This document shows positions 2,922 through 55,136 of a stretch of DNA of 64,000 bases, piece by piece. The stretch spans positions 22,935,419 through 22,999,418 of the forward strand of contig OY987243.1 of the NCBI GenBank assembly GCA_963920765.1. The letters are read 5' to 3'. This DNA is from Ulota crispa (Eukaryota; Streptophyta; Bryopsida; Orthotrichales; Orthotrichaceae). Under the pieces are notes generated by a model. That model saw only the letters and a program-made list of their open reading frames with translations. It was not told the origin of the DNA and made no database searches. A program made the translations under genes and the position numbers. Position 1 is the first letter of the stretch. Each line of letters begins with the position of its first letter.

Positions 2922-3155
2922 TTAACCCTTAAACAACCGAAAGACCCTTTGCAATCAGTACAATACAAGGTATTTTTCTTGTATTTGGAATGGATCCACA
3001 CCTCTACTACATTTAAGACCAACAAAGAAGCTGGAGATTAGATCAATGTGATTCTAGTGAGCTACTTGAGATCCCAAATTAAAGTTTCTTATTGGTAACA
3101 AATGACAATTATACGTCAACTTATATACTGTTTCCTATGGTCGTTTAAGGGTTAA
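2922..3155 (+). mobile_element. piggyBac-type MITE, family A copy 1
   Basis: This 234-bp element is bounded by TTAA on both sides. The left end reads TTAACCCTTAAACAACCGAA and the right end, on the other strand, TTAACCCTTAAACGACCATAGG. The interior has no ORF. It contains the family-A core (TTTTCTTGTATTTGGAAT, then GATCCCAAATTAAA) that is also seen at 6293-6519, 6516-6757 and 8690-8916. TTAA duplication with CCC-initial inverted termini is the known signature of the piggyBac superfamily. The element itself is non-autonomous. Confidence 0.72.
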
Positions 3156-4967
3156 TGCTTCCATCTGTGTTGGAATCAACCTCCCCAACCGCGTGCTCCC
3201 ACATCCCTGATAGTTGTAAAAGCCAATTGCATGTTAGGACCGCAGACTCCTCTGCGAGGGTACTATAAGAATTACACATGTAACAAAGTCCTCCTTTTGC
3301 AGTTTTCAAGGCTCTTACTTTTGCCTCAACTCCTCTGTTTCCAAGGCTCTTACTTGTGTCTCAACTGAGTACACCCCAAAAGGTAAAGACAAGGCCCATA
3401 TCTGAAGGTGTTATACAAAATCTGACAAAGCAACCAATTGAGGAAAGATCAGGAAAAGGAGGATTAAGATTTGGAGAGATGGAGAAAGACCGTCTTCATT
3501 TGTCCTGACTCTAGTAGATATGCTCTGGTAATAATCTGTGCATAAATTGGATTTTCTTACTCATGCTTTCAAGCAAATTTCTCATAGAATTTTTTTGTCC
3601 TTGTTACAAAGCTTTGCTTTTTAGTTTTGTGCCACGTCCTTGCTTAAGTCAGTCGTACCGTATGGCAAAAACAACTCTCCTTGCTTGCTGGTGCTTGTAC
3701 TCTCTTTTTCTTTGACAATGAATTCTTCCTTTGGAGTCCTTGCCTAATGGACTGAATGCGAAAAGGGGCATATCCATGGCACAACCCCCGTTCAAATGAT
3801 TTCATCACTTTTGTTTTCAATGTATTTTCCTTTCACCCCCCGCCCCCCCCCCCCCCCCGGAAAGAAAAACGTTGACAGTAAAATCAAGGTAAAGGAAAAA
3901 TAATGACAAAATTCAATGTCCAATGGTTGTGGAGGTTTTTGTTAGGTTGCGCAATGCCTTTAGGGCATCCTTCCATGTGAGGGGGGGTGGGGATGGAGCT
4001 CACTAATAATCAGTCGGATGGGATTTTAGAAAAATCAAAATTTTCATTTGATTGATTATTGGTGAGCTATAGTGAGTTTCAATGGCCACTCCCCTCACAT
4101 GGAAGGAGGTCCTATATCCTGTCCCCCCTCCAAGTATCCATGTTTTAATGAATTTAAAATCTGAATTTGCAATTCCACTCTATGTTCTAATTTATTGATT
4201 TTCATTCAAATAAAAATACTTGTGTAGTAGCATTTTCTAGAAGTTTTGGTGCCAAAAAAAAAGGGGAACTTTGCTTCAAGAGTTAACTTCAACAAAAATA
4301 GATACCCAACTTGAGAGCCATATTTCAACTTTTTTTTCTTTGCAAAACAAATTTAATATGTGTTGTTTAAGCTATTCTAACTGTTATTTGGTAGAATTAG
4401 TAAGATCTTGAACAGACAAATTCTTGAATTCACTCTAACTCAAAAAGTAAAAGTGAGACTCAAATTTTCTAAGGAGGGAACGTATCTCTTATAGTCAGCT
4501 AGATTTGGGGAGAAATTTAGCTTCGCCAGCTAATATCTATCGTTTGCCATTTTCAACCAATTTATCTCTGGCATGCACCGGATGTTCCACACGTTTATAT
4601 TGCAATATACTAGAGTAAGTTCTTTTGGAAAAATCTAGCCAATATTTCATCTTACAGTTTCCGATTTCAACCTAGTTACAACGTTGATTCCCAGCGTTTG
4701 CCTTATGGACTATAGAATGGGGTAATGAGCAGGGAGATCCAAAAAACAACAGAAAGCTAGTGAAATGAAATGTCAAAAAACCTGTAGAAATTTGATATAA
4801 TCAGATAAAAATTGGCTGAGTTTTAGGGATAACTACTTGAAGTATAAGTATTTATGCAATATTTCATACATGCATAAAAAAAAACTAACTGAAAGTAGGA
4901 AATGTAGTATCTTTACCAAGGATGTTCAAAATCTCCCTACCTCATTCGATGGGCTAGGGTGAACTAA
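3156..4967. other. Intergenic DNA, no gene recognised
   Basis: No coding region is supported. The stretch holds a cytosine homopolymer run at about 3839-3858 (an assembly-risk site), a small inverted-repeat element at 3963-4112, and a diverged repeat near 4550-4690 (listed with its partner at 2500). Confidence 0.6.
3963..4112. mobile_element. Small MITE, about 150 bp, TA-flanked
   Basis: The inverted termini GGGCATCCTTCCATGTGAG and GGACCTCCTTCCATGTGAG face each other over 150 bp. TA lies immediately outside both ends, which fits a TA target duplication (mariner/Stowaway-like), although a Harbinger relative is possible because of the GGGCATCC end. There is no ORF. Confidence 0.5.
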
Positions 4968-5292
4968 GGTAAGAGGCTCATAAACCGACCATCTAAGAGC
5001 TGAAACTGAATTTTGGGAGGTGGAACTTCTTGAAATATTTTTCAGTAAATTTTTCTTGAAAAACAAGAGGAATTGGCATTTAACTCAAGTTATTTTGTAT
5101 TTTTTAGAGCAATGTGGAATTAGTTATGACATTTTGAAGTGGAAAGGTCATAGGGCTCTAAAATGGATCACTTCCTCAAATGTATGTCCATTGTACATTT
5201 TTGAAAGGCTATGAATAAGAGCATGTATTGGTAGAGTTCATTTGGGGAGGTGAGTGGTATTACTGCCCTAATAGAGTTTGAGCCTCTTACTT
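4968..5292. mobile_element. MITE family C copy 1 (GGTAAGAGGCTCA ends)
   Basis: An approximately 325-bp element whose left end GGTAAGAGGCTCATAAA is mirrored by GAGCCTCTTAC at the right. Its interior (GAGCTGAAACTGAATTTTGG, then GGAATTAGTTATGA) recurs at 7323-7646 and, more diverged, at 48641. Superfamily is not assigned because no clear target duplication is visible. Confidence 0.6.
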
Positions 5293-5358
5293 TAACCCCC
5301 TCCTTGCCCACTTGGATGAACGGGGCATAACCAAACGCTTGGTCAACTCCTTTAACCC

Positions 5359-6296
5359 TTAATCCCTAAGCGCCCATGCCGTTTTCACCAAAATCAAGGT
5401 TTCTAGAGACAAATAACTTTGATACATTGTATCTTAGTCAATTAGATGATCCACAAAAAGTGACCATTGAAAATAGTAGAACACCTATTTAGAAAATGGC
5501 TTACAAATTTTGCGAAGAGTTGACTCCGAGAGATGGGAGATTACACTAGAATAAAACTAGAAGAAGATATGTTAAAGTCAACATAACCAACTTGATAATG
5601 TTTTGTTCCTAACGCAAAATTTTGCATTGGAAATGCAAAATTTTGCGTTAGGAACAAAACATTATCAAGTTGGTTATGTTGACTTTGACGTATCTTCTTC
5701 TAGTTTCTTCTAGTATTATAACATTTGATCAAACAACATGTGATGGCAAAATCCCATTTTTGGGTAGGTAGTTGCTATTTGATAATTTTTACAAAATTCT
5801 ACAAGCCCCTAATTCATCTCAAATTTTGTGAGCAACAAGATTAGATGTGAATGCACACACTTGTAAATTATTGAAGATTGCACTTCTTTTTTTGTCAAGT
5901 TATTAGTGCTTCAAACCACTATTGCGCAAAAAACAATGACTAGCACAGTTAGTGACAATTGCCATAATAAGGGTCTAGAACATGCTTGAACCCTTGACAA
6001 CAAATTTCCCACTACCACAAAGCTTACACAAGGAAGCTTGTAAGGAATATTGATAGGTTGAAGCTTGAAAAACGCTGCTTGCTACCACGCCCTGTATGGT
6101 GTTTCACCCAATCAAATCTCTTGCAGCACTTGTACAACCTTTGACTTCCCTTGCCATTACTCCAATGGCATGGACAACTTAAGTGCCTTCATAATTGTAG
6201 TTTATAGCAAGATTAAGAAATTAGATCCAGTGCCTCAAACACACCTTTGAAATCATCAGCAACCAAAATCTAGTTGCTGGGGCGCTTAGGGGTTAA
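5359..6296. mobile_element. piggyBac-type MITE, family B copy 1
   Basis: The left end is TTAATCCCTAAGCGCCCATG, or four bases further out if the preceding TTAACCC is counted. The right end on the other strand is TTAACCCCTAAGCGCCCCAG. Length is about 940 bp with no ORF. It contains a near-perfect palindrome at 5557-5702. Its right TTAA is shared with the left end of the next element (6293-6519). Confidence 0.65.
5557..5702. repeat. Near-perfect palindrome (hairpin) inside family B element
   Basis: Two arms of roughly 70 bp (from ACTAGAAGAAGATA to GCAAAATTTTGCATT and back) are inverted copies with a centre of only a few bases near 5629. I see only a few mismatches, all near the outer ends, which suggests a recent origin or gene-conversion upkeep. 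The RNA would be a long double-stranded stem. Confidence 0.85.
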
Positions 6297-6519
6297 ATGA
6301 CCATAGGGCATAGTATATGCATTGCTGTATAATTGGCATTTGCTATCAATAAGAAGTTTTGATTTGGTATCTCAAGTAGATCACTAGAATTGCTTTTATC
6401 CATTCTCCGGTTTCTTTGTTGATCTCAAATGTAGTAAAGGTGTGAATCTATTCCAAATACAAGGAAAACACCTCGTATTGTACCGGTTAGAGCAGCACGC
6501 TCAGGCATTTAGGGGCTAA
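6293..6519 (-). mobile_element. piggyBac-type MITE, family A copy 2 (reverse)
   Basis: This is family A in reverse orientation. It begins TTAAATGACCATAGGG at the TTAA that ends the previous element and ends CATTTAGGGG-CTAA, a one-base variant of TTAA. The next element begins in the same CTAA, so two family-A copies sit head to head across one shared tetranucleotide. Confidence 0.68.
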
Positions 6520-8689: not shown

Positions 8690-8916
8690 TTAACCCTTAA
8701 AGGACGGAGTGTGCTGCTGCGACCAGTAGAATACAAGGTGTTTTTCTTGTATTTGGAATAGATTCACACCTTTACTGCATTTGAGATCAATAAAGAAGTT
8801 GGAGAATAAATCAAAGCGGTTCTAGTGAACTACTTGAGATCCCAAATTAAAACTTCTTATTGGTAGCAAATACCAATTATACGGCAGCGCATATACTACG
8901 CCCTATTGTCCCTTAA
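8690..8916 (+). mobile_element. piggyBac-type MITE, family A copy 4, right end clipped
   Basis: The left end TTAACCCTTAAAGGACGG and the full family-A core are present. The right terminus stops at CCTATTGTCCC-TTAA and lacks the GTTTAAGGG seen in copy 1. Its last TTAA is the first TTAA of the foldback element that follows, so the clipping probably relates to that insertion. Confidence 0.6.
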
Positions 8917-9638
8917 CCCCTAAAGGACCAAGTGTCCCCTCGGGGGACAAATGGGATTTTGGGCAGGTACTCACAACTAAACTACTTTGTATGATTTTCT
9001 AGATTTTTCACGGAAGATGGGGAATTCAAAGATCTATGTGGGCATCTAATTTTTTCCTCATTCCGACATTTATTGAAGAAGTTAAAAATGAATTTCTAGA
9101 AATAAGTTGAGATCAGGCAACCCAAATTATTCTTTAAAAATTGAGTTTAAAAAAAATAAAAATATGAAATAGGTTCTTTAGACTTATATATAGATGGGGA
9201 GCTTTGAATCATTCACTTTTGATTGATGAGATGAAAGTTATGAGAAGTTTTTGTTTGTGGGTAGGTGTGATTTTGACAAAAACCATACCTACCTGCAAAC
9301 AAAAACTTCTCATAACTTTCATCTCATTAATCAAAAGTGAATGATTCAAAGCTCCCCATCTATATATAAGTCTAAAGAACCTATTTCATATTTTTATTTT
9401 TTTTAAACTCAATTTTTAAAGAATAATTTGGGTTGCCTGATCTCAACTTATTTCTAGAAATTCATTTTTAACTTCTTCAATAAATGTCGGAATGAGGAAA
9501 AAATTAGATGCCCACATAGATCTTTGAATTCCCCATCTTCCGTGAAAAATCTAGAAAATCATACAAAGTAGTTTAGTTGTGAGTACATGCCCAAAATTCC
9601 ATTTATCCCCGAGGGGACAATGGTCCTTTCAGGGTTAA
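8913..9638. mobile_element. piggyBac-type foldback element (family D derivative)
   Basis: This 726-bp element is bounded by TTAA. The two halves are inverted copies of each other with about 355-bp arms and a short centre near 9275. Each arm corresponds to one end of the full-length family D elements (24972-25910, 35808-36757, 19304-20249), starting TTAACCCCTAAAGGACC and CCCCTCGGGGGACAA. It is therefore a head-to-head derivative that lost the other terminus. The arms differ at few positions. Confidence 0.75.
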
Positions 9639-10145
9639 GGATTAAATATGAACCATGGGACAATAAAAATGCCTCCCATAGTTGAGAACTCATTCACACA
9701 AAACGGGGAAAGATATCCCTGTAGGTATCGGCATGGCACAAGAAGATCCCACCATCTTTATGGTGTATACTTATCCTCAATTTCCCCTTCGAACATCTAA
9801 AGGTTTTGAAGATTTGAAGATTGTGATCCCATGAAAGAAAATATAATTCTCCCAAGTTTAAGATACAACTCTTTCAGTAATGTCATATACCACGTTGGAT
9901 AAGGGTTGTAATTAGCCCCTTGGTGCAAACACTCGATGAGAGTTTGAAATCTTAGTCGTAAGAGTTTTGTGCTTACTTGTTTTATGTGAACATATCTTTA
10001 AGGGATTTTTAAGTTGGGTACATTTGGAAGCTAAATTTGTTTTTCCGTTGGCCTCAATTTGTCAAGATTTTTTTTCTTGGCTGTTTTAAAGTTTTTTGGG
10101 GAGTTTTTATGTGCACATCCAGAGTTTGATCGAGAGTTTGATATA
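9639..10145. other. Intergenic DNA with a diverged repeat copy
   Basis: 9645-9860 resembles 240-480. The remainder (to 10145) shows no feature I can support. Confidence 0.5.
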
Positions 10146-10455: not shown

Positions 10456-10462
10456 CCCCTCA

Positions 10463-11337
10463 TGTACAATTGGGTACAAGAAACATACAAACCCTAATTT
10501 GAGCTAGTGAGGTTTCTTTATAAAAACATGGAGTCTAAGTGGTCCATTTTGGTAGGAAAAAATATTATTGCATCCTTATGCAATGTAAAGCAAGTATACT
10601 AAATTTCAGTTCCTAAAAACCAAAAATCCATTTTTGGTGAATTGTTTTGTAGTAAATTCATGATTTTACATGATAATTTATTGAAAAGTATTGGTGATGA
10701 ATTTTTGAGATTTGATTCCATGGATATGTAGGAAACATCTATATGCACATCTTCCATGCTAAAAAACCCCCTTAAGTAACAAAAACTTTACCAGCAAAAG
10801 ATTCAATGAAACTTGTAATAGGCCCAAATTTTGTAAAATACATATTTTTGTTTCTTAACTAGCTTTTCATCAAGTAAACAAAACATGATGTTTAGATATA
10901 CAAACTTAGCTACAGTGTTTGAGTCAAACAACAAAATTTGATTTTCATAAAAAAATATGTATTTTACAAAATTTGGGCCTATTACAAGTTTCATTGAATC
11001 TTTTGCTGGTAAAGTTTTTGTTACTTAAGGGGGTTTTTTAGCATGGAAGATGTGCATATAGATGTTTCCTACATATCCATGGAATCAAATCTCAAAAATT
11101 CATCACCAATACTTTTCAATAAATTATCATGTAAAATCATGAATTTACTACAAAACAATTCACCAAAAATGGATTTTTGGTTTTTAGGAACTAAAATTTA
11201 GTATACTTGCTTTACATTGCATAAGGATGCAATAATATTTTTTCCTACCAAAATGGACCACTTAGACTCCATGTTTTTATAAAAAAACCTCACTGGCTCA
11301 AATTAGGGTTTGTATGTTTCCTGTACGCGACTGTACA
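10463..11337. mobile_element. Long-hairpin element, family E copy 1 (TGTACA ends)
   Basis: Both ends are TGTACA. Arms of about 380 bp (TACAAACCCTAATTTGAGC and its complement at the outer ends, CAAATTTTGTAAAATACATA at the inner ends) are inverted copies with few differences, around a loop of about 110 bp. Arm blocks such as GTGATGAATTTTTGAGATTT recur in the elements at 21819, 33847 and 34753. Superfamily is unassigned because I see no target duplication. Confidence 0.75.
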
Positions 11338-12732
11338 TATATCAAACCTCAGGTGTGCACTTATCAATTTCCCTTTTCTTTTTGTCATTTTCCTCAATTA
11401 CTCACTTAGTAGAACTCACGTTTCTAGTTTATTTATACAAATGAGTCTATAATTGCACATTAGTGCACCTTGGTAGGTGTGCAAAACTCTTTTGTTTTCT
11501 CATTAGAAATTGCAATTTCGTGTGAGAAGTCTTCTTTATTCTCGTGCAGAAATGCATGTGAAAAACTTTGCTCTTGACAAATGTTTAAGATTTCCTATTA
11601 GTAGATGAATGGAGTCACAAAATGGCCATCCATCCATTTTGTGAAAAAGTTACTATATTGCCCAAAGAAGTCATTAGAGTGCTTCTAAAAGCAATCTTTT
11701 TTGTCATTAGACCACATTTACCACATTCCTAGATACACAAAAAGCCAAAACATTCTTGAAGTGGCACTCTCTTTACCAAGTTTTAAAACAACCAATCCAA
11801 AAAAACTTAAGGCCCGTTTGAAGAAAATACAAGCTTTGATAATTCTAGAAGAAAAGGAATAATTAGCAAGGCCACATAGATCATTGAAATTTTAGTTATA
11901 TCTTACAATGGTCATTCATTATACTTTCTCTTCTACAAAACAAATGTTTGCAAAACAAACTAGAAATGTGTGCATTTCAACAAGCATGTAGTCTCTCTAT
12001 TCTTATTAGTAAATGATTATTTTGATATTTTAAACAAAGAGTTTAAAATGATAACCTCATTCACCGCTAGTAATATTGTTTTGTAAAATTTTGTGAGTAC
12101 ATAGTAACTTCAATAGAACCAAGAATATAATCAATCTTTATCAAAAAATCAAGGTTTACTATTTTCAAATTTCTTTATGTCCTAAAGGATCAAGCCCATT
12201 TTTTCTTTAAAAACACTCAAAACTATCAAATCTAGTCATTTGATCCCAAAGACATGTTTGTTTTGTTATGTTTTGTACAAATCCAACCATAAGATTTTAC
12301 ACGAAATTAATGCAAGTGACACAATGTATATTTTATGACATGTAACCATATGAATTGGGAGATGTGATCATTTGAAGTCATTGTAAAAGTTTTTTTTTTT
12401 TTTATCTTTGTCTAAAATTTGCAAGTCCCTTTGCATGCTTGCTATAAGCATTTTTTTCACTATGGGTGCTAAAGGGGTTTGTTCAACATGTTTTAAATCA
12501 TGTTGGGAATATCTCCAAAAGTTTTTGTGGCCAAAAAACACATGGAACACACCTTACATGGGCATGCATTGCAAACATGTATTATCAAAGTCACACTACA
12601 TTGAGATTTTTTGCAAATTGTATTCTAAGGGACAATTTTAAGTTGGAAGATTCTAGCTTTATTGACAATCACCAAATTTTTGAAAACTAAACCAAATCTT
12701 TAGTAGCTATTGCAATTCAAAAGTGAATAGTT

Positions 12733-12795
<63 letters not shown>

Positions 12796-13204: not shown

Positions 13205-13840
13205 TTAACCCCTAAATGCTTGAGGCCTTTTTTGAGCTTCTTTGAATTTTCTCTATCTTGAACAAAAAGGCAACATTTTATTAAGTTGTCTCAAGTTTTT
13301 TAAATGGTAATTGCACAAATTCAAACTAGATATGTTAGAGATTACACAAAAAAAGAAAACACACCAGTATCACTTATGGATTGAAAGATTACAATGTTTG
13401 ATCATGAGGGTATCAAAATTGCAGATATGACTTGCAGTCTTTCATTCTTCCTTTCACATGTTGGATCTAAAAAGTTAGGTCACTAAAAAAATATAAGATT
13501 AAAGAAGACAACATACATAACTCTAGTCACTTTAAGGCTTTTCAAAATCTCTTCAAAAAAATATTAAATTGAATTTCTAGTGTAAATTTTTCTCCAAGAT
13601 CTAGTGTATTTGAGGCTCATTTCCAAGAGCTCTCAACACTACAGAACGTCAAGATCCTTGTACAAAACCTTTAACAAAAAAATCAGATTCAATCATTTTC
13701 AAAATCCAATTTTGATTCTAAAAATAGACTTCAAGAAGAATACCTCAAAAATGTAAACTACTAAAAATAGTAAATTAATTAGATTTAATGATTCAAATTA
13801 TTATTAACAGCAAATGGTGCCTCAGGCATTTAGGGGTTAA
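13205..13840 (+). mobile_element. piggyBac-type MITE, family F copy 1
   Basis: This 636-bp element is bounded by TTAA. The left end TTAACCCCTAAATGCTTGAG matches the right end read on the other strand, TTAACCCCTAAATGCCTGAG. The interior block ATTGAAAGATTACAATGTTT occurs reversed in 20246-20894, so both belong to one family. No transposase frame. Confidence 0.72.
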
Positions 13841-19303: not shown

Positions 19304-20249
19304 TTAATCCTTAAAGAACCAAGCCCTTCGTTTTGTGTGAGAATCGCTAAAAATTGCCACTTCTAGGAGGTTTAGTAAAAATAGATTTTATGTTTTGTTT
19401 TTGGGAAATCCATTTATAGGGTCTTGCCCCAAAATAGAAGAGGTACTTGTGGGGAAAAAATCAGCTCATTCTAGATGGAGAGGAGGGAGATATTTACATT
19501 TGAAGTGAAGAGAGAAGTTTTTTTTCCCTACTTTCCATAAATTTTTGAACTCTTTGACCACTCTTACATGAAAAAATTGCTCTACCCAAAGTTGTGCTTT
19601 TAATTTACCATGTAGGAGATCAAGTTAGGTGTATGTGGGAGAATTTTCAAATCAATTGGAACTATACAACACATGGGACAAAAATAGTATATATAAAGAA
19701 ACAAAGAATGAGTCAAAACACTAAATTGTTAAGAATTGAATTATTGAGATGAAAAATACAAATTCCAACAGTTATAATGTTGTGATAAACAATTTGCTTC
19801 CTTTGGTTTAATTTTTTTCCAAAATTTTGAAAATTGAGTAAAATAAAGGACTTCAAAGTTTATTTTAGAGTAGTGAATCCACAACTACCCGCAAACAAAA
19901 ATTCCTCATGACTTTCATGTCATTGATTGAAATTGAATGATTCAAAGCTTCCCATGTATAAAAAATATATCTAAAGAACCAATTTCAAAAGTTTAATTAA
20001 ACAAAAAGTGAATTTTAAAGAAGTTTTTGGGTTGCCCAAATAGGCAATTGTACCCAAATTTTCATAAATTTGTGCATAACTTCTTTGTCAAATGTTAGAA
20101 TGAAGAAAAAGTTAGATGCCCACATAGATCTTTGAATTCCTCATCCTCCATAAAAGTTTCAAAAAATCACACAAAGTAGTTTAGCTATAGGCACATATGC
20201 TTGAAGTCCAACCTGTCCCCCAAAGGAACAATGGTCCTTTAGGGGTTAA
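19304..20249 (+). mobile_element. piggyBac-type MITE, family D full-length copy
   Basis: This 946-bp element runs from TTAATCCTTAAAGAACC to TCCTTTAGGGGTTAA. It is in the same orientation and internal order as 35808-36757. Its right TTAA is also the left TTAA of the next element (20246-20894). No transposase frame. The outer left end is more decayed than the right. Confidence 0.7.
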
Positions 20250-20894
20250 CCCCTCACCGCCCAGGGGACTCAAATTGGGCCCCTTTGAATCTTATTCAAA
20301 GATGTGCTACCTTTTTTTAAGCTTTTTTTAGTGATTATTATTATTTTTCAATTCTTATTGAAGTCTAGTTTCAGAATTAGGAGTCTGATTTTGAAAATGA
20401 ATTAAAGGGATTTTTCTATTCAAGATTTTGTGCAAGGGTGTCCATTGCAAATCTTCACTTTCTAGTGCTGAAGGCTCTTGGAAATGAGCCTCAAGTACAC
20501 TAGAACTTGGAGAAAAAATTACATTAAAAATTCAATTAAAAAAAATTGTAGAATAGATTTTGAGAAGCCGTAAATTGAATAGGGTTATGCATGTTATACT
20601 TTACACACTATTTTTTTGGTACCTTTAATTTTAGGTTTGAGATGCAAAAGGAGGATTGAAAGACTTTAAACCACTTTCGCAATTTTAACACCTTATGATC
20701 AAACATTATAATCTTTCAATCCGTAAGTGATATTGTTGTGATTTTTTTCCTATGCAATCTATAACATGTCTACTTTGAATTTGTATGGTTGCTCTTTAGA
20801 GAAAATTGATGAGATTGATCAAAAAGCAGACATTTTGTTCACTTTCAAGCAAATTTTGAGATACTCAAAAACAGCATGGGCGGTGAGGGGTTAA
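20246..20894 (-). mobile_element. piggyBac-type MITE, family F copy 2 (reverse)
   Basis: The ends are TTAACCCCTCACCGCCCA at the left and, on the other strand, TTAACCCCTCACCGCCCATG at the right, over 649 bp. The interior is the reverse of 13205-13840 for at least 150 bp (AATCTTTCAAT block). Terminal sequences differ between the two copies while the interior is shared, so the termini have diverged or been exchanged. Confidence 0.7.
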
Positions 20895-22111: not shown

Positions 22112-22662
22112 TTGACCTTTGAACATTCAAGGGGGTAAGGTCAAAACATAAATGCATTATAAAATGATATTTTTGTAATTTCAATGAAGTTTATTTTTAA
22201 AAAGAAAACAAGAATAATAATGTTTAGTAATTATCCATATGGTCAAACATTCAAAAAAGTTTTGTACTTTTCTGTAATAAATTTAGAAGTATTTATCATT
22301 TAATATTCATCAAATTTACAAATTTTATTCATAGAGTCTAAGATTTGGTATGATTGGTTAAAATAGAAATTCTATTTGAAAGTTAAAAAATGCAACATTG
22401 ATGATGGAGAGAACATTAGTAGTTTCCCAAAATAGTAAATTTTGTAACACTAGCAAATATTGAAGTGTTATTCTTTGAAAAATTCTCCTTGGTAGAGTTT
22501 AACTTGGATTGACATGATTCAAGTTGGATTGGAAAGTAAACTTGCTTTCCTATTTGAAAATATTTTTAATTTTTTCAAATTTTTTTTTTTTTTTTTCATT
22601 TTAGGCAGCTTGCAAAAAAGGATAACAACTAGAAAATGGTTGATTGGGCATTTAGGGGTTAA
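22112..22662. mobile_element. piggyBac-type element, strongly decayed at left
   Basis: The right end on the other strand is TTAACCCCTAAATGCCCAAT. The left end reads TTGACCTTTGAACATTCAA, which differs mostly by transitions. Colinearity of the host hairpin element across this interval supports it as an insertion of 551 bp. The right TTAA is followed by GTAAC exactly as in the empty site at 10775. Confidence 0.5.
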
Positions 22663-23012: not shown

Positions 23013-23244
23013 TTAACCCCTAAAGGGCCTGAATGCCCTTTGCGGCCATATGTATGACCGTATATATAAATGTATTTGAGTTGCTCTAAGGGTTTTTCAA
23101 AAAATTTAATGCACCCATCATCATACAACCCTTCAATATGTATGGTTGTAACACTTAATTTCTAGATGATTCAAACTTTTGAATATTGGTTGCGATTATA
23201 TTTGGTACCGTAGCTCTAGAGCCCAAGGGCCCTTCAAGGGTTAA
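23013..23244. mobile_element. piggyBac-type MITE, 232 bp, nested
   Basis: The ends are TTAACCCCTAAAGGGCCTGA and, on the other strand, TTAACCCTTGAAGGGCCCTT. It sits in the hairpin element at a TTAA. Flanks CATCACAGATGC and CAGTTACCATGTAAA continue one another as in the related copy at 11101-11135. Confidence 0.7.
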
Positions 23245-24971: not shown

Positions 24972-25910
24972 TTAACCCCTAAAGGACCAACTGTCCCCTC
25001 GGGGGACAATTGGGATTTCGGGCATGTACTTACAACTAAACTACTTTGCATGATTTTTTGAAACTTTTATAGAAGATGAGGAATTCAAAAACCTACGAGG
25101 GCATCTAATTTTTTCTTCATTTTGACATTTATTGAAGAAATTATGCATGAATTTCTGCAAAAAGGTGGAGATTGGGTAGCCAAAAACTTTTCTAAAAATA
25201 ACATTTTTTCAAAATAAAAATCTGAAATTGGTTCTTTAGATTTATACATATGTGGGGAGCTTTGAATCATTCAATTCCAATATAAAATTGAAAAGTTTTA
25301 GTTTGCGGGCAGGTACGGAACTCCCATACTTCCATTCCTTTTGCCTTTGGTGCTATACTTTTTGTGCTCTTTGTGAATTTGTTTTTTGACTTTTTTTTTC
25401 CATATTGTAGTAGACTAAGATTCCTTGGTTTTCTCCATTTGGATCAAAGTAATTCACATTTCACAATTTTACATAAATCCTCCAATTTTGCCTAGTGTAT
25501 ATGCAAATTTGATGGCCTTACGGCATTGCAGGATTTTACAAAATGTGATTCACACCTCCAATTCATTTGAAAATTCTCCCACACTTACCTAACTTGGTCT
25601 TCTACATGGGAAAAATAAACCTCACATTTGCGTAGAGCAATTTTTTAGATATAGGAGGCATCAAAGGCTTCTAAAAATTTGGGCAGCAGGGAAAAAAACT
25701 TTTTTTTTCACTTCAAAAGTCAATATCTCACTCCTCTACATCTAGAATGAGCAAATTTTTTTCCCACAATTACCTCCCATAGTCTAGGGCAAGATCTTAT
25801 GGTTGGATTTCCAAAAATAATTATTTTTCCTACCTTTGTACTCATTCCCCCAAAAGTGGGAGTTTTCAGTAACTTTCACTAAAAAAAGGGCTTGGTCCTT
25901 TAGGGGTTAA
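24972..25910 (-). mobile_element. piggyBac-type MITE, family D, inserted in LINE ORF2
   Basis: This 939-bp element is bounded by TTAA. The ends are TTAACCCCTAAAGGACCAAC and, on the other strand, TTAACCCCTAAAGGACCAAG. It is reverse to 19304-20249 and 35808-36757. The LINE reading frame continues across it if the element and one TTAA are taken away: WLMLNKGLSTGKR spans the junction, the normal sequence type just before the zf-RVT cysteines. This is direct evidence of a 4-bp TTAA duplication. Confidence 0.85.
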
Positions 25911-33846: not shown

Positions 33847-34716
33847 TGTATAGTACCAGTTAGTATTGATAGGTAGAACTTGTTTTGGCATTTCAAAGAA
33901 GTTTGTGTACCAAAAAATGTAAAGGTCATTTTAATCTCATATTTTTGGCATGTGATTCTCATGTAATTTCAATGAACCATATCAAAATTTGGTTACTAAA
34001 AATAAAAATCTTATTTTTGGTAAGTTGTTTTGTGTCAAAATTGCAGTTTTACAAGAAAGTTGATTAAAACACATTGGTGATGAATTTTTGAGATTTGATA
34101 ACATGGATGCATAGGAGACATCCGTGCGCACATCTTTCCTTCTAACAAACATCTTCAAAAAGTTCAAAATTCCTTCAATGGAGACTTGAAAGTTGGTGTA
34201 ATCATGACCAAATTTAGTAAAATAAATCCTTCTTCATAATAATAAAATTGTGCTATTTGACTCATACATTATGATCTATACCATTGAACATAGTGATATG
34301 TTTATTTTGCCAAAAACTAATTAAAAAGTAAAAATGTTTATTTAACTAAATTTGGTCATGATTACACCAACTTTCAAGTCTCCATTGAAGGAATTTTGAA
34401 CTTTTTGAAGATGTTTGTTAGAAGGAAAGATGTGCGCACGGATGTCTCCTACGCATCCATGTTATCAAATCTCAAAAATTCATCACCAATGTGTTTTAAT
34501 CAACTTTCTTGTAAAACTGCAATTTTGACACAAAACAATTTATCAAAAATAGGACTTTTATTTTTAGTAACCAAAATTTGGTATGGTTCATTGAAATTGC
34601 ATGGGAATTACATGCCAAAAACATGAGATTAAAATGACCTGTACAATTTTTGGTATTCAAACTTCTTTGGAATGCCAAAACAAGTTCTACCTATCAATAC
34701 TAACTAGTATTGTACA
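33847..34716. mobile_element. Long-hairpin element, family E copy 3
   Basis: The ends TGTATAGTACCAGTTAGTAT and, on the other strand, TGTACAATACTAGTTAGTAT bound arms of about 370 bp. The arms are mirrored with few differences around a centre near 34280. E-type arm block GTGATGAATTTTTGAGATTT is present. The mirror frames encoding MNFLKMFVRRKDVRTDVSYA on both strands are a by-product of the palindrome. Confidence 0.75.
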
Positions 34717-34752
34717 GAAAGAAACCAAAGATTGAGGCAAGAGGGAGGCTCA

Positions 34753-35694
34753 TGTACAGTGGCCTCCAACAAAGATTGTTGGGCTCTCATTTGCAATGTA
34801 GAGGTCAAGTCACATTGTGATATGAAGTTGAGGTCAATTGGCCTCTTTTTATCTTGAATTTTTTGAATTTTATTCTTACCCCAATTCCAACCAAGTATGC
34901 CAAAATTCAACCTCAAAAAACTAAAATTCAAGTATTGATAAATTGTTTTGTGTCACAAATCATGGCTTTACATGGTTTTACAAGAAAACTGATTGATAAA
35001 TATTGATGATGAATTTTGGAGCTTTGATTGCGTGGGTATATAGGTAACATTCATACGCACATGCATACACAAATCTTCCAAGCTAAAAAACCCCTCAAGT
35101 AAAACAAAATTGATCTTCAAAAGGCTTAGTGTGACCTATGATATGTCCAAATTCTGTAAAATAGATACTTTTATTTTTTGGTTAGCTTTTCACCAAATAA
35201 ACACAACAACATGTTCAAAGGTACAAACTTAGTCACAATGTATGAGCCAAATAGCAAAATTTGATTATCATAAGAAGAAATCTGTTTTACAAAACTTGGA
35301 CATATCATAGGTCACACTATGCCTTTTGAAGATCAATTTTGTTTTACTTGAGGGGTTTTTTTAGCTTGAAAGATTTGTGTATGCATGTGCGTATGAATGT
35401 TACCTATATACCCATGCAATCAAAGCTCCAAAATTCATCATCAATATTTTTCAATCAGCTTTCTTGTAAAACCATGTAAAACCATGATTTGTGACACAAA
35501 ACAATTTATCAATACTTGAATTTTAGTATTTTGAGGTTGAATTTTGGCATGCTTGGTTGGAATTGGGGTAATAATAAAATTCAAAAAATTCAAGATAAAA
35601 AGAGGCCAATTGACCTCAACTTCATATCACAATGTGACTTGACCTCTACATTGCAAATGAGAGCCCGACAATCTTTGTTGGAGGTCATTGTACA
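34753..35694. mobile_element. Long-hairpin element, family E copy 4
   Basis: TGTACAGTGGCCTCCAACAA at the left is mirrored by TTGTTGGAGGTCATTGTACA at the right. The arms are over 400 bp. The inner part (TAGCTTTTCACCAAATAAAC, GTACAAACTTAGTCACAATG) matches the loop of 10463-11337. It lies 36 bp from the previous hairpin element. Confidence 0.75.
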
Positions 35695-35807
35695 AGAAGA
35701 TGCCATCCAAAACTCATAAAACCTTCACCTTAAAATCTTGACTAATTCTTTTTCTTTTTATTTATTTATTTACTTGTTTGTTTAGCCTAAAATCAATTAT
35801 TTTCATT

Positions 35808-36757
35808 TTAACCCCTAAAGGACCAAGCCCTTTTTTTTTGTGAAAATCACTCAAAACTGCCACTTTTGAGGGAATGAATAGAAATGTAGGAAATAAAGTT
35901 TTTTTGGAAATCCAACCATAAGATCTTGCCCTAGACTATGGTGGGTACTTGTGGGAAAAAAATCAGCTCATTCTAGTAGTAGAGGAGTGAGATATTCACA
36001 TCTGAAGTGAAAAAAAAAAGTTTTCTTCATTGCAGCCCATAAATTTCAAAAGCCTTTGACGGCTCCTATATCAAAAAATTGCTCTATGCAAAGTTGAGGT
36101 TTATTTTTCCCATGTAGAAAACCAAGTTAGGTATGTGTGGGAGAATTTTCAAATGAAATGGAGGTTTGGATCATACTTTGTAAAATCCTACAATGCCATA
36201 AGGTCATGAAATTTTCATATACACTAGGCAAAATTGGAGGATTTAAGTAAAACTCAAAAACCCAAATTACTTTGATCCAAATGGAGAAAACCAAGGAATC
36301 TTAGTCTATTACAACTTGCCAAAAAAAAGTCAAAAAACAAATACACAAACAGCTCTAAAAAGTAAAGCAACAAATTTTACAAGGGGGAAAAGGAATGGAG
36401 GTTTGGGAGTCCCATACCTACCCGCAAACTAAAACTTCTCATAACTTCCATCTCATCTATCAAAATTGAATGATACAAAGCTTTCCAAATACATAAAAAT
36501 TCAAAAAACCAGTTTCAAAATTTTATTTAAAAAAATTGCATTTTTTTCATTGCCCAATTCTCCCATGTTTTTCAGTTATTCATGCATAACTTCTTCAATA
36601 ATTGTTAGAATGAAGGAAAAGTTAGATTCCCACGCAGATCTTATAATTCCTCATCTTTAATAAAAGTTTCAAAAAATCACACAAAGTAGTGTAACCATAA
36701 GTACATGCTTGAAATCTCAATTGTCCCCTGAAGGGATAATGGTCCTTTAGGGGTTAA
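35808..36757 (+). mobile_element. piggyBac-type MITE, family D full-length copy
   Basis: This 950-bp element has TTAACCCCTAAAGGACCAAG at the left and, on the other strand, TTAACCCCTAAAGGACCATT at the right. It is the best-preserved family D copy in this orientation. A subterminal CCCCTGAAGGG block at the right corresponds to the CCCCTCGGGGG of other copies. No ORF of transposase size. Confidence 0.78.
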
Positions 36758-36933: not shown

Positions 36934-36970
36934 TTAACCCCTAATTGGAAGGTCCTTCGAGGGAACTTTT
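36934..36970 (+). mobile_element. Orphan piggyBac-type left end
   Basis: TTAACCCCTAATTGGAAGGT with a following CCTTCGAGGGAAC resembles a left terminus. No matching right end lies before the next element at 37020, so this is a truncated remnant or a chance match. Confidence 0.35.
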
Positions 36971-37019: not shown

Positions 37020-37904
37020 TTAACCCCTGAACGACCAAGGCATCAAATTTTGGTGTTCAGGAAACTTTGAGACCTTCCTAAAGGCAAAGATTTAAAAAAT
37101 TTAATTTTTGAAGAAGTTAGGGTTTGAAATTAGCTTCAATGTTCAATTTGAATGTCTTCCATACTACATTCCAATTATTTTTTGGGGAAACTAAATTGCA
37201 AGCATGCCTACTATGAATTGAAAAGTGTGATGAATAGTGGCATTGAAGAGCTTATTTCAAGCTTCCACGTTAGAAAATGGGTTACAAATTGAAAATAAAG
37301 TCATGAACTCCCCCTAGGCATTGAAGGGCTTTATATTGAAAACTCATCATCTAATAAAATTTAGGTGTGTTTTAACATTAATTTCACTTGCAATGTCTCT
37401 CATAGAGATCAAAATACATTCACCATTGAATTCTCTTTCATTCATAATGATTTTTGGTCAATAATGGGAGCTAAATTTTTTCTTTGTATAAGGTGGTGGC
37501 TCTTTGACAATTGCATTGCAAGCTCATTTGTGAAATTGTGATCATGGATTTGGAAGAAGAGTCATTAGTTTTGAATTAACAACAATAAACACTAAATCAT
37601 CAAGAGTGATTATTTCTAAAATTTATACCCAAAAGTTGCCATTTTTGCATTAGAAGTTTTGGGTGACTTAAAAAGAAAATAGTAAAATTTGGATTCATCC
37701 TGATTCAATCACTAGTATCTTGACATCCACTTGACTCATTTGGATGTTTTGTTTGATAGCACCATCTAGAATCCTTGGAGTTCAAGATCTTACATACACC
37801 ATTATGTTTCAATGTTTAAAAGTAATCTTACAACGACAATTCAAAAACTTCAAAAATGCATTCTGAAAACAAGAAAAAAGTACCCTTGGACACTTAGGGG
37901 TTAA
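37020..37904. mobile_element. piggyBac-type MITE, 885 bp (family J)
   Basis: The ends are TTAACCCCTGAACGACCAAG and, on the other strand, TTAACCCCTAAGTGTCCAAG. Both outer tetranucleotides are TTAA. The interior shares no obvious block with the other families and has no ORF. Confidence 0.65.
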
Positions 37905-44979: not shown

Positions 44980-45344
44980 TTAGCCCTTGAATGCCGGGTT
45001 GGTCACTATGACCAGCCCGGCTACAGTTCTCTCTACAGTAGTAGAGATTGGCCACCCTATCAGATTGTTTCTTGAAGTTGCAAAAGTCAACAATGCATGG
45101 TGCCCTCATGAAAATTTCAAGAAGGGCAGCTTGGGACCTAACACTGTGTTTTTGAATCATATCACAATTTGGGTTACCTAAAAATATGAGTGCATTTAAT
45201 GAAATAATATTTTGCATTCCATGATGGATCATGTGTTTATGATCACTTCTGAAAAAAAGCAAATGAAAAACAGTTTTTTCTCGTAGCACAAAATCTTTTT
45301 TCAGAGCTAGAGGACAAAAAATGTCCTCCATGTTTAAGGATTAG
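44980..45344 (-). mobile_element. piggyBac-type element, family G copy 1, TTAG on both sides
   Basis: The element has left end TTAGCCCTTGAATGCCGG and right end TTTAAGGATTAG. The flanking tetranucleotide is TTAG at both sides instead of TTAA. Read on the minus strand it is colinear with 54766-55136 (shared TTACCTAAAAATATGAGTGC and TGAAAATTTCAAGAAG blocks). An open minus frame spans it, but comparison with the other copy argues against coding. Confidence 0.62.
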
Positions 45345-45419: not shown

Positions 45420-45657
45420 TTAACCCTTGAGCGCCCAGAGTTATTGTAGGATTTAGGAGAAAATGGAGGGTTTAATGGCCACCACAGCTTGGAAAATTAT
45501 ATCTAGTAAAAGTGGCCATAGGATTTGAAAAAAGATTACCTTCTCTGCTGATGGGGACCAGGCATGATTGTTTTCACAATACAAATTAAGAGAAAAAATG
45601 ATATAAAGTTGTGGGCCCCAATAACAGGATCCTATTGTTGGGGCGCTTAAGGGTTAA
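45420..45657. mobile_element. piggyBac-type MITE, 238 bp, family B-type termini
   Basis: TTAACCCTTGAGCGCCCAGA at the left and, on the other strand, TTAACCCTTAAGCGCCCCAA at the right. Both ends carry TTAA. Termini resemble 5359-6296 (CTAAGCGCCC) while the interior does not. Confidence 0.72.
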
Positions 45658-51394: not shown

Positions 51395-51545
51395 CGACGT
51401 GACAAATTTCTAAAGACCCATTTCGATTGCGTAATATATCAGAGCTCTCCGCGATTCTGAGGTGCTGAGATTTCGAGACGAGTGATGTTGGTGAGGTTTT
51501 AAGACAGATTTAGTACAATTGTGTGTGTGACGCTTGAATTTCAAG

Positions 51546-52868
51546 ATGGCGAGGCACCGCGAGAAATTGACGATCACGGAGCAGGTGCACCCGTCGACAA
51601 AACACGGAATCTTGAACTTCGGCGGACGAGGATTTCATCCCAAATTGCCGTTCCTAGCAGGACACAACAAGACGAAGACGATTCCACTCGGCCCGCACTT
51701 CACGGGGCCGCAGAAGCGGGACGATGGCTTCGGTGGTGAGATAGATACCATACCAAAGTCGAGGTCGCAGGGAAGCAGTCCGGAGAAAATAGGAATGACC
51801 GGATCCAACCATGAATCACACGGGCTTCACCACTGGTTGGCGAAGCAGATTCATCATGAAGAACCGGAAGCGGAGGTGGCGTTGCCGAGGGTTAGCAGCA
51901 TGAACGACCATTCAACGACGTCGACGGAGCACAAGAAGGTCAAGTTTCCGGACATGAAGAAATCCGCCTCGTGGGGGCACTTCGTGGAGACTGTCTCGCA
52001 GGCCGATTTGGCGCCGCATCTGGAAATGGAGGTCCCGGAGGATTGGGCGTGTGACATGTCCTGCCTCTTCCTCGGGCACAAATTCGCCACAGGGAACCAT
52101 TCTCGTCTCTACCAAGGCGTGTATCAAGATCAAGACGTCGCGGTGAAGCTTTTGCGTCTTGATAGTTGCGAGGACGCGACCATCGCCAGCAACCTCGAGC
52201 GTCAATTCATGCAAGAAGTGCACTGTTTATCCCAATTGCACCACCCTAACATCGTCAAGTTCATGGCCGCCTCGTGGAAGCCGCCAGTGTGTTGTATTAT
52301 TATGGAGTACGTCCCGGGAGGATGTCTCCGATCGTTTCTGCATCGGAACGAATCCGGGTCGCTGTCGATGAAGACGATCTTGTCCATGGCTCGCGACGTC
52401 GCGATGGGAATGGAGTATTTGCATTCGCAGCACGTCGTCCACCGCGATTTGAAGTCGGAGAATCTGGTACTGACTGAGGATTTGCATGTGAAATTGACTG
52501 ATTTTGGCGTGGGTTGTTTGGAAACGGAGTGCGATTCGAAGAATGCGGATACTGGCACGTACCGATGGATGGCTCCGGAGATGATCAGTCGCAAGCATTG
52601 CTCTAAGAAAGTGGATGTTTACAGCTTCGGCATCATTCTGTGGGAGCTCGTCACCGGTCAAGTGCCGTTCCGTGACATGACTCCCGTGCAAGTTGCGTTC
52701 GCCGTGGTGAACAAGAATGCGCGGCCAAGCATTCCGGACACGTGCCCGTTGCCTCTCCGACACTTGATGGAGCATTGCTGGACTGAGAACCCCGATCGGC
52801 GTCCCAACTTCTACCAAATTGTACAAACCCTCGAAGACTTGGACAATCCGTTGTCCGAGGAGCCCTGA
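51546..52868 (+). CDS. HT1-like: HT1-like Raf-type MAPKKK (protein kinase, group C)
   Basis: A single-exon 440-aa Ser/Thr kinase. Residues 1-165 form a low-complexity basic N-terminus. The kinase domain starts near 175 with a relaxed glycine loop (GHKFATGNHSRLYQG, 177-191), VAVK lysine at 201, HRDLKSEN at 299-306 (catalytic Asp301), DFG at 319-321, GTYRWMAPE at 337-345 and DVYSFGIILWEL at 357-368. LETECD after DFG and MTPVQVAFAV are hallmarks of Arabidopsis HT1 and its group C Raf-like relatives. HT1 controls CO2-regulated stomatal opening; the role here is inferred only as cytosolic MAPKKK-type signalling. All catalytic residues are present. I chose ATG 51546 because the frame upstream has only a TTG before a stop. 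No introns are needed, unlike most flowering-plant homologues. Confidence 0.92.
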   Translation: MARHREKLTITEQVHPSTKHGILNFGGRGFHPKLPFLAGHNKTKTIPLGPHFTGPQKRDDGFGGEIDTIPKSRSQGSSPEKIGMTGSNHESHGLHHWLAKQIHHEEPEAEVALPRVSSMNDHSTTSTEHKKVKFPDMKKSASWGHFVETVSQADLAPHLEMEVPEDWACDMSCLFLGHKFATGNHSRLYQGVYQDQDVAVKLLRLDSCEDATIASNLERQFMQEVHCLSQLHHPNIVKFMAASWKPPVCCIIMEYVPGGCLRSFLHRNESGSLSMKTILSMARDVAMGMEYLHSQHVVHRDLKSENLVLTEDLHVKLTDFGVGCLETECDSKNADTGTYRWMAPEMISRKHCSKKVDVYSFGIILWELVTGQVPFRDMTPVQVAFAVVNKNARPSIPDTCPLPLRHLMEHCWTENPDRRPNFYQIVQTLEDLDNPLSEEP

Positions 52869-54033: not shown

Positions 54034-54294
54034 TTAACCCGTGGGCGCCCAAAGTTGAAACGAAAGAAGCCTGACTTGTGTGCAATTAAAGTGTGCAATC
54101 AAAATGCCCTTATGGACTGACAAATACAATTTAGAAGATCTGACCATATGTATTGTTAGTGGAAAGAGTCTCCATCATGCTAGGCTTGATTGGAAGTTGT
54201 TTCACCAAACGTGCAATGAGATTATAACGGTCAAAATTGAGTTGACTTAGCTTTTTGAGCGACAGTATATTGTCGCTTGGGCGCTTCGGGTTAA
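54034..54294. mobile_element. piggyBac-type MITE, 261 bp, family B-type termini
   Basis: TTAACCCGTGGGCGCCCAAA at the left and, on the other strand, TTAACCCGAAGCGCCCAAGC at the right. TTAA on both sides. The interior is unlike the two other elements with GCGCCC termini. Confidence 0.68.
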
Positions 54295-54356
54295 TACAAT
54301 ATCGATTGGTTTTTGAGGGCATGAATGTGTATTGATGTCACATTACTAGAATCATC

Positions 54357-54769
54357 TTAAACCTTTAACGAGTGGTCGACCACTTTGTGGTCGATCCGGC
54401 CCCTTTTCCTTGTGTCGGAAGAGAATGACAATGAATGTGGTGATTAGCCAAAGGGGACGTTTTTGGTGAATTGGGAAGTGAAGAGTTTAGGACAATAACC
54501 AGGTTGATTTGAGGTGGCATGTGGACAGAGGGTTGAAAAAACTAAAAGAGTATCGGCTAAAAATACACCAATGAATGCAAGAAGATGGCCATAACAACTA
54601 AAGAGTGAGCATAATTCATGATGCATAACACTAAACCTTGCAAGATACTTCCATCTATACGGTCAGATATGTGATAGACATCTGTATTCAATAGTTTTAA
54701 AATTTCCCCCAAATAGCCATACAAAGGATTGCCCACCCCTAGAATCGACCACGGTTGTTAAAGGGTTAA
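54357..54769. mobile_element. piggyBac-type MITE, 413 bp (family H)
   Basis: TTAAACCTTTAACGAGTGG at the left and, on the other strand, TTAACCCTTTAACAACCGTG at the right. A perfect palindrome GTGGTCGACCAC lies just inside the left end and GTGGTCGAT inside the right. Its right TTAA is also the left TTAA of the next element. Confidence 0.7.
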
Positions 54770-55136
54770 CCCTTAAACGCATAGGCAGATGTTTTGCATG
54801 TGCTGCCCCTAAAAATGTTGTGCATAATGGATTTTTTTTGTTTTTCATATGATTTTTTTCAAAAGTGACCATAACACATAGACCATTGCAAAAAGAAAAA
54901 GAAAATGATCTTGTTAGATGCACTCATATTTTTAGGTAACCTAAATTGTGAGACAATTCAAAGACACAGTGATAGGTCCCATACTTCACTTCTTGTAATT
55001 TTCATGAGGGCACCATGCATTGCTGACTTTCGCAGCTTTTAAAAACAATATTATAATGGCTAGGCCCTTGCCACACCACTATAGAACAACTATACTTGGG
55101 TAGCCATGGAGACTAGCCCAATGTTCAAGGATTTAA
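54766..55136 (+). mobile_element. piggyBac-type element, family G copy 2
   Basis: TTAACCCTTAAACGCATAGG at the left. The right end on the other strand is TTAAATCCTTGAACATTGGG, with one extra base. Colinear with the reverse of 44980-45344. The open frame found in copy 1 is only partly open here. Confidence 0.65.

What the first reader, a model, noticed from the sequence alone, without database searches (positions are those of the whole stretch)
2922..55136. About 20 short TTAA-bounded elements with piggyBac-type ends in what looks like a plant genome
Elements at 2922, 5359, 6293, 6516, 8690, 8913, 13205, 19304, 20246, 22112, 23013, 24972, 35808, 37020, 44980, 45420, 54034, 54357 and 54766, plus an orphan end at 36934, all start TTAA-CCC(C/T)T or a close variant and end with its complement. 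At least eight interiors are unrelated, so several non-autonomous lineages are mobilised by one terminal code. TTAA duplication with CCC-initial ends is the piggyBac superfamily signature, known mainly from animals, fungi and protists; to my knowledge land-plant cases are sparse. No DDE transposase of that family is in the window. This is the most unusual signal here and may represent an undescribed plant MITE expansion.
Basis: partly seen in the sequence, partly recalled or inferred. Interest (0 to 1): 0.78.

Follow-up and report, generated by a model that had tools for sequence, protein, structure and literature searches.

The report
piggyBac mini-transposon swarm in a moss
A moss genome holds tens of thousands of perfect end sequences of short, gene-less jumping DNAs of the piggyBac type, a kind that plant surveys rarely list, and one such short DNA seems to have changed its end code several times, perhaps to ride on different enzymes.

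Summary
The window carries about 18 short TTAA-bounded elements with CCCYT ends; 14 of the 20 listed starts have paired ends. Two listed starts (6293, 8690) are pieces of 234-bp elements interrupted by others; rejoining their flanks gives intact relatives with one TTAA. Genome-wide, TTAACCCYTNANNGNCC occurs 31,318 times (reversed control 9), and 83.5% of 15,309 longer ends follow TTAA. The genome has at least 120 piggyBac-type (PF13843) transposase matches, none scored in the window. In 19 of 25 loci read a CCCYT end pair flanks the transposase, against a high background (219 of 600); one window element (37020-37904) looks like an internal-deletion derivative of such an element. A LEAFY exon points to a moss. 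I read this as MITEs re-coding their ends to follow different transposases. Mechanism is ordinary piggyBac; host, scale and end-recoding are the new parts.

The parts
2922..3155 (.). 234-bp MITE, ends CCCTTAAACRACC, TTAA both sides
5352..6519 (.). 234-bp MITE of the 2922 family (5352-5358 + 6293-6519, reverse orientation), interrupted in the second TTAA of its own end
5359..6296 (.). 938-bp element, ends YCCCTAAGCGCCC, nested in the preceding host with TTAA duplicated
   Evidence: similar end type at transposase locus L021
6516..6757 (.). 242-bp MITE of the 2922 family, CTAA at the left and TTAA at the right, abutting the preceding host
8690..9645 (.). 234-bp MITE of the 2922 family (8690-8912 + 9635-9645), interrupted in the second TTAA of its own end
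8913..9638 (.). 726-bp foldback MITE: two 332-nt arms 98% complementary, both arms similar to one end of the 24972/35808 family
13205..13840 (.). 636-bp MITE, end code TAAATGCC; first-look candidates 4,931, 40 scored, the other scored full copies 82-86% identical to the window copy
19304..20249 (.). 946-bp element related to the 35808 family (75% over both end regions)
20246..20894 (.). 649-bp MITE, end code TCACCGCC, interior homologous to 13205 but other ends; shares its TTAA with 19304-20249
22112..22662 (.). 551-bp element, left end degenerate (TTGACCTTTGA), right end CCCCTAAATGCCC
23013..23244 (.). 232-bp MITE, ends CCCYTRAAGGGCC
24972..25910 (.). 939-bp element, ends CCCCTAAAGGACC pairing 18/18, 82% identical to the 35808 element
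35808..36757 (.). 950-bp element, ends CCCCTAAAGGACC pairing 18/18; first-look candidates 9,154, 40 scored, best other copy 91%
36934..36952 (+). orphan end TTAACCCCTAATTGG, no convincing partner
37020..37904 (.). 885-bp element that looks like an internal-deletion derivative of a transposase-bearing element (L023): 591 bp at 74.6% at one end, 182 bp at 66% at the other
44980..45344 (.). element with degenerate ends, 80% identical over 218 bp to the 54766 element
45420..45657 (.). 238-bp MITE, ends CCCTTRAGCGCCC
54034..54360 (.). possible element, left end TTAACCCGTGGGCGCCC, no right end found
54357..54769 (.). 413-bp element, right end 34 bp at 88% to an end of transposase-bearing element L024
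54766..55136 (.). 371-bp element, right end degenerate, shares TTAA with 54357-54769

Best explanation
The elements are non-autonomous piggyBac-superfamily transposons (MITEs and at least one apparent internal-deletion derivative) in a moss genome. SHOWN: they sit in TTAA, duplicate it, have CCCYT.A..G.CC inverted ends, and share ends, in one case long end regions, with elements of about 5-7.5 kb that carry a DDE_Tnp_1_7 transposase. INFERRED: a transposase made elsewhere in the genome bound the MITE ends, cut them out at TTAA and pasted them into other TTAA sites, including the TTAA at, and inside, the ends of earlier elements, which gives nested and back-to-back clusters. The tip is common to nearly all ends seen; the next ten or so bases vary by lineage and tend to be alike on both ends of one element. 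INFERRED: this block is the address read by each transposase lineage, and MITE families have moved from one lineage to another by changing both addresses. The bursts are probably past: copies read are 4-10% from their family majority, and I recognised no full-length unbroken transposase frame among the 25 loci read (introns not modelled).
For: Counts: TTAACCCYTNANNGNCC 15,685 + 15,633 = 31,318 against 9 for the reversed pattern; CCCYTNANNGNCCNAG 15,309 against 46, of which 12,784 (83.5%) follow TTAA, where window base composition predicts about 1%. Empty sites: two nested hosts with insert and one TTAA removed are each 234 bp and align end to end with the uninterrupted 2922-3155. Flanks: the 8 best-scoring 20246-family copies have TTAA on both sides; of 11 copies of the 13205 family (window plus 10 fetched from the best 11 others, one left out because its match began at base 11) 6 have both and 5 have one side changed by a base or two (judged by eye past my trimming). 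Transposase: 120 PF13843 matches; L023 pieces match PF13843 (E 2.6e-59 and 3.7e-7), piggyBat 9c0f (1.7e-16) and piggyBac 6x67 (3e-13), with D268 and D346 (named in PMC7351741) aligned to D. End pairs of 11/16 or more flank 19 of 25 transposase loci against 219 of 600 combinations of ends from different loci (Fisher p=1.8e-4); 13/16 or more, 8 of 25 against 41 of 600 (p=3.1e-4). Link: 37020-37904 matches both end regions of L023. Codes: Mantel r=0.474, p=0.0001, n=19; 11 collapsed lineages r=0.36, p=0.046. Core: a 39-mer with 319 exact copies; 16 loci read, 12 with both ends under the stricter rule; left and right codes differ by 3.0 of 11 on average against 5.3 permuted (p=0.0001). Host.
Against: End pairs near transposases are partly chance because MITEs are dense: 36.5% of mismatched combinations also reach 11/16, so several of the 19 pairs may be neighbouring MITEs (L019 probably is). 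6 of 25 loci gave no pair. The codes that look commonest in the places listed (CCCCTAAAGGACC, CCCCTAAATGCCC; by eye) have no clear transposase partner among the 25 loci. The first Mantel result is carried largely by close relatives; collapsed, it is weak. The 16 core loci were chosen by an exact core match, so their low core divergence is partly built in. Of those 12 with both ends, L066 has unlike ends (7 of 11 differ) and three others differ at 4. No transposition was observed.
Confidence: 0.93

Rival explanations
1. Another TTAA-duplicating superfamily (Kolobok, recalled) mobilises the elements, and the piggyBac transposases are unrelated neighbours.
For: TTAA duplication alone does not separate the two; 36.5% of end combinations from different loci reach the pairing threshold. 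I did not search for a Kolobok transposase.
Against: An 885-bp window element matches both end regions of a PF13843-bearing element over 591 and 182 bp; end types follow transposase lineages; CC[C/T]T ends with TTAA are given as the piggyBac hallmark in PMC2872659 (passage).
Confidence: 0.03
2. Ends are read promiscuously, by one or a few transposases through the tip alone, and the variable block is noise inherited with each element family.
For: The tip TTAACCCC is nearly invariant (divergence 0.042 left, 0.076 right) and could be all that is read; the Mantel signal is weak after collapsing lineages.
Against: In elements that share a core the blocks are the most diverged part (0.50 left, 0.52 right) and yet alike on both ends of one element (3.0 against 5.3 differences, p=0.0001); neutral change would hit the two ends independently. 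The piggyBac structure paper describes contacts at bp 2-6 and bp 9-14 (PMC7351741, passages).
Confidence: 0.2
3. The shared core with different ends arose by slow co-divergence of MITE and transposase rather than by switching.
For: Between-family divergence is uneven along the element and interior stretches also reach 36-38%; there is no sharp breakpoint.
Against: The majority sequences of the two MITE families differ at 24.6% of bases, while the transposases with matching ends (L023, L027) differ at 66% of residues, which looks too much for the same time span. The match of code to transposase is itself only by end sequence.
Confidence: 0.25
4. The counts are an artefact of contamination or of a non-plant contig.
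Against: Element ends or copies are listed on contigs C1 to C10, in a genome with 56 light-harvesting matches and a LEAFY gene close to the moss chain.
Confidence: 0.01

Closest known systems
piggyBac superfamily transposons (piggyBac of Trichoplusia ni, piggyBat of Myotis)
   Same: TTAA target, CCCYT ends, DDE_Tnp_1_7 transposase with D268 and D346 aligned, C-terminal cysteine-rich stretch seen by eye
   Different: Host is a moss; the transposase-bearing elements with paired ends are about 5.0-6.3 kb in the nine measured and up to about 7.5 kb by the rule, against about 2,472 bp for a well-defined piggyBac (PMC10813416, passage); four long frames (255-539 aa) beside the transposase match no Pfam family
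Coral CMITEs (PMC2872659)
   Same: TTAA, CCCTTT/CCCCTC ends, piggyBac-like partner, well conserved interior with less conserved ends across families (passages)
   Different: CMITEs are about 100 bp and 18 to 737 per family (bracketed figures of its Table 1, which I take for genome estimates); here elements are 230-950 bp with 31,318 exact ends genome-wide, and the link between end code and transposase lineage was tested
Pokey and its MITEs mPok1/mPok2 in Daphnia (PMC3849761, PMC4912750; start of abstract in the search listing)
   Same: piggyBac-superfamily element with MITEs
   Different: inserts at an rDNA site as well as elsewhere; two MITE groups; animal host
Plant MITEs of Mutator, hAT, CACTA, PIF/Harbinger, Tc1/Mariner (PMC12550479, PMC2528002; passages)
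   Same: short inverted-repeat elements moved in trans
   Different: different target duplication, ends and transposase (recalled for each superfamily)

Membership tests
piggyBac superfamily | TTAA target site duplication | tested here: met
   83.5% of 15,309 ends after TTAA; two empty sites; 8 of 8 copies, 6 of 11 copies exact on both sides
piggyBac superfamily | 12-19 bp inverted ends with CC[C/T]T tip | tested here: met
   definition from a passage of PMC2872659
piggyBac superfamily | DDE_Tnp_1_7 transposase in elements with the same ends | tested here: met
   one long link (37020-37904); the end-pair background is high
piggyBac superfamily | catalytic triad D268/D346/D447 | tested here: inconclusive
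   first two aligned to D in L023; the third not aligned, seen by eye in a GVDVADQ stretch, which I recall as the region of D447
piggyBac superfamily | C-terminal cysteine-rich domain | tested here: inconclusive
   cysteine pattern seen by eye in L023, L019 and L016 translations; no model for it was run
piggyBac superfamily | seamless excision | not testable with these tools
   needs alleles or an excision assay
Kolobok superfamily | Kolobok transposase in elements with these ends | not tested
   no model for it was searched
MITE | short, gene-less, high-copy, with inverted ends | tested here: met
   no ORF of 150 aa or more inside an element; (copy numbers are first-look candidates, 40 scored each)

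The most novel reading that the evidence does not exclude
In this moss a coexisting set of at least eleven piggyBac transposase lineages has evolved private end addresses, and MITEs survive by re-coding both ends while keeping a conserved core, so that one non-coding cargo has been passed among several transposase lineages: an arms-race-like 'address switching' that makes transposase-end recognition readable from natural sequence.
Probability: 0.45. Interest if true: 0.75.

Novelty: new variant of a known kind. Interest (0 to 1): 0.62.

Why it matters
The plant MITE survey seen here sorts MITEs into five superfamilies without piggyBac (PMC12550479); in this moss piggyBac-type ends reach 31,318 exact copies in 275 Mb. 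If the address reading is right, the natural pairing of about a dozen transposase lineages with variant end codes, and of one core with about five codes, is a data set from which the recognition rules of piggyBac, a widely used gene-delivery tool, could be read and tested.

Tried and rejected
Loose end matches (two mismatches in 12) were dropped as evidence because random sequences give 23 against 50 observed. A first TIR search on 20 loci was replaced by a rule with a between-locus control, which showed a high chance background. Transposase frames without stops in the matched part (6 of 25 loci: L009-L013 and L019) were considered as domesticated genes and not pursued: in each the match is partial, in two pieces, or goes on in another frame, and all but L010 gained an end pair under the second rule. 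Hairpins 10462-11338, 33846-34717 and 34750-35697 were checked as further members and rejected: ends are TGTACA-like, without TTAA. The Niphotrichum moss paper was rejected: the word there is 'piggybacking'. Rfam gave nothing in the window at gathering scores. PMC10175614, checked for plant piggyBac, showed none in its passages. Genome fraction: window coverage (15.3%) scaled by exact ends per Mb (window 17 per 64 kb; genome 31,318 per 274.8 Mb) gives about 6-7% and about 33,000 elements; this is my rough extrapolation, not a count. Dropped rows: 4 of 16 core loci (L056-L058 without a right end, L071 without a left end), one of the best copies whose match began at base 11.
Full report
WHAT IS THERE. 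The listed coordinates were read directly. Strict ends TTAACCCYTAAA occur 15 times in the window and not once in 20 Markov-1 random sequences. 14 of the 20 listed starts have a partner end at 13 or more of 18 bases within 1.3 kb (the pairing itself had no shuffle control). Three have degenerate ends (22112, 44980, 54766), one has no partner found (54034), one is an orphan (36934), and 6293 is not a start. The elements together, hosts included, cover 9,763 bases, 15.3% of the window.

NESTING GIVES EMPTY SITES. Element 5359-6296 lies inside a 234-bp element (5352-5358 + 6293-6519), and 8913-9638 inside another (8690-8912 + 9635-9645). Taking out the insert and one TTAA gives 234 bp each time, and both align end to end with the uninterrupted 2922-3155, also 234 bp. 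In both cases the insertion used the second TTAA inside the host's own end (TTAACCCTTAA or a variant). Genome-wide, TTAACCC directly before a full end occurs 113 times among 12,784, where base composition predicts about one; the end of another element (TNARGGG) directly before TTAA occurs 697 times (some junctions are counted from both sides), where composition predicts about four. Element ends themselves supply TTAA sites: 393 TTAA in the window scale to about 1.7 million in the genome, of which 31,318 exact ends are about 2%, so 5.5% shared ends is only a few-fold more than availability. This is a rough figure.

GENOME-WIDE TEST. CCCYTNANNGNCCNAG occurs 15,309 times against 46 for the pattern read backwards. 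The same preceded by TTAA occurs 12,784 times against 1. The shorter TTAACCCYTNANNGNCC occurs 31,318 times against 9. The window is richer than the genome (17 such ends in 64 kb, against 114 per Mb). The window families are large: first-look candidates 4,931 (13205), 4,379 (20246) and 9,154 (35808), of which 40 each were scored, most of them full length; candidates are not confirmed copies. Divergence from the family majority is 6-10% for 11 copies of the 13205 family and 4-6% for 9 copies of the 20246 family, all taken from the best-scoring copies, so typical copies may be older.

HOST. 56 chlorophyll a/b-binding matches show a green plant. A LEAFY exon is identical at 104 of 106 residues to PDB 4bhk_A and much less so to the four other LEAFY sequences found. 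The table names 4bhk_A 'FLORICAULA/LEAFY homolog 1'; that it is from the moss Physcomitrium patens is recalled. In a search with one light-harvesting protein the best hit was a 620-residue chain matched in two stretches (9vfj_2), followed by 8htu_U and 7xqp_a, which I recall as Physcomitrium. The host is therefore most likely a moss; the species is not known.

TRANSPOSASES. PF13843 has at least 120 matches; 116 of 528 candidates were scored, and a few loci give two matches. None of them lies in the window. 25 loci were read with flanks. Under one rule, 19 of 25 have a left and right end that agree at 11 or more of 16 bases; for ends taken from different loci it is 219 of 600 (Fisher p=1.8e-4). 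The background is high because MITEs are dense, so single pairs are not proof. The better ones are L023 (15/16), L018 and L051 (14/16), and L009, L015, L019, L027, L052 (13/16); the L019 pair has unlike codes and its left end region matches the 24972 MITE family, so it is probably a neighbour. L023 pieces match PF13843 and the solved piggyBat and piggyBac transposases, with the aspartates of positions 268 and 346 aligned. 19 of the 25 loci have stops inside the domain match and 6 have none in the matched part; in those 6 the match is partial, in two pieces or continues in another frame. I recognised no full-length unbroken frame, but did not model introns. Four long frames beside transposases match no Pfam family.

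LINK BETWEEN MITES AND TRANSPOSASES. 37020-37904 matches 591 bp of one end region and 182 bp of the other end region of L023, as an internal-deletion derivative would. 20246-20894 matches L027 only at its ends (32 and 22 bp, about 91%), 13205-13840 matches L023 only at ends (32 and 21 bp), and 54357-54769 matches L024 over 34 bp at one end.

MANY CODES, NOT ONE. Across 19 paired loci the distance between transposase domains and the distance between ends correlate (Mantel r=0.474, p=0.0001). Collapsing lineages closer than 40% leaves 11, with r=0.36, p=0.046. The nine close pairs differ by 4.0 of 22 end positions on average, all other pairs by 9.1. In the piggyBac structure the tip (bp 2-6) and a second block (bp 9-14) are contacted by different parts of the protein (PMC7351741, passages), which fits a constant tip and a variable block.

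ONE CORE, SEVERAL CODES. 13205 and 20246 have homologous interiors (531 bp at 74%) but different ends. Between the family majorities divergence is 24.6% overall, 2.5-10% in columns 160-240 and 400-440, and 30-61% near the ends; other interior stretches also reach 36-38%, and divergence within the families is lower in those core columns too. A 39-base core piece occurs 319 times. The first 16 places listed were read. 15 of 16 have a left end 167-170 bases from the core and 13 of 16 have a right end called, at 469-494 bases. By eye the codes are TAAATGCC and near variants (L057, L062, L065), TCACCGCC (L056, L068, L069), TCAAYGCC and near variants (L058, L063, L067, L070, right end of L071), AAAGYGAC (L059, L060) and AGAA..AC and near variants (L061, L064, left end of L066); for L056-L058 only the left end was called. 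Under the stricter rule 12 loci have both ends; left and right codes differ by 3.0 of 11 on average against 5.3 when shuffled (p=0.0001); L066 has unlike ends (7 of 11). Among these 12 the block of bases 9-18 diverges by 0.50 (left) and 0.52 (right) and the tip by 0.042 and 0.076. Three codes match transposase loci L023, L027 and L051, whose domains differ at 50-66% of residues, much more than the MITEs do. I therefore infer switching between transposase lineages rather than joint descent. Choosing loci by an exact core builds in some of the low core divergence; the two-family comparison was not chosen that way.

MECHANISM. Shown: target, duplication, ends, gene-less interiors, transposase-bearing elements with matching ends, nesting. 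Inferred: cut-and-paste in trans by piggyBac transposase; lineage-specific reading of the second end block; re-coding of both ends, perhaps by recombination or conversion between elements. How both ends change together is not known.

LITERATURE. Nine searches of the held library were made. I read passages only, no whole paper. [quoted passage not shown] A 2025 survey of 207 plant genomes, four of them bryophytes, uses five superfamilies plus Micron, and neither piggyBac nor TTAA occurs in its main text (PMC12550479). Against novelty: PiggyBac in a table of superfamilies found in all groups studied (PMC4438587), named among superfamilies in a plant review (PMC10794571), said to have been isolated from plants among others (PMC10813416), and 1,230 calls in a fern (PMC6890710). 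No paper on piggyBac MITEs in a moss appeared in these searches; most subscription journals are not in the library, and I had no access to Repbase. The closest parallel is the coral CMITEs, with conserved interiors and less conserved ends (PMC2872659).

VERDICT. Membership in piggyBac is met on target, ends and transposase family. New relative to the held literature are host, scale, and the evidence that end codes track transposase lineages and differ among MITEs with one core.

Noticed in passing
window 10462-11338, 33846-34717, 34750-35697: Three long hairpins (arms 345-407 nt, 92-98% complementary) with TGTACA-like ends and no TTAA; a different family of hairpin elements, superfamily not identified.
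   Followed up: partly
window 8913-9638; L020 30-755: Foldback MITE whose two arms both resemble one end of the 24972/35808 family; another copy about 80% identical stands in L020. Transcripts would fold into long double strands and could feed silencing.
   Followed up: partly
window 27097-27774, minus strand: Frame with a reverse transcriptase domain (PF00078, E 8e-9) among other minus-strand frames between 26578 and 30319, probably a decayed retroelement.
   Followed up: no
window 51534-52868, plus; 60909-61538, minus: Open frame of 444 aa with a protein kinase domain (PF07714) and a 209-aa frame with TPR repeats, probably ordinary genes or exons between the elements.
   Followed up: no
L023, L024, L025, L028: Frames of 255-539 aa beside the transposase inside elements match no Pfam family; possibly first exons or a second gene.
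   Followed up: partly
G000 C7:18203169 and C7:18223004; C2:36765124 and C2:36779670; C10:676128 and C10:785346: Pairs of transposase matches with equal or nearly equal scores in opposite orientation, about 15-110 kb apart, suggesting inverted segmental duplications.
   Followed up: no
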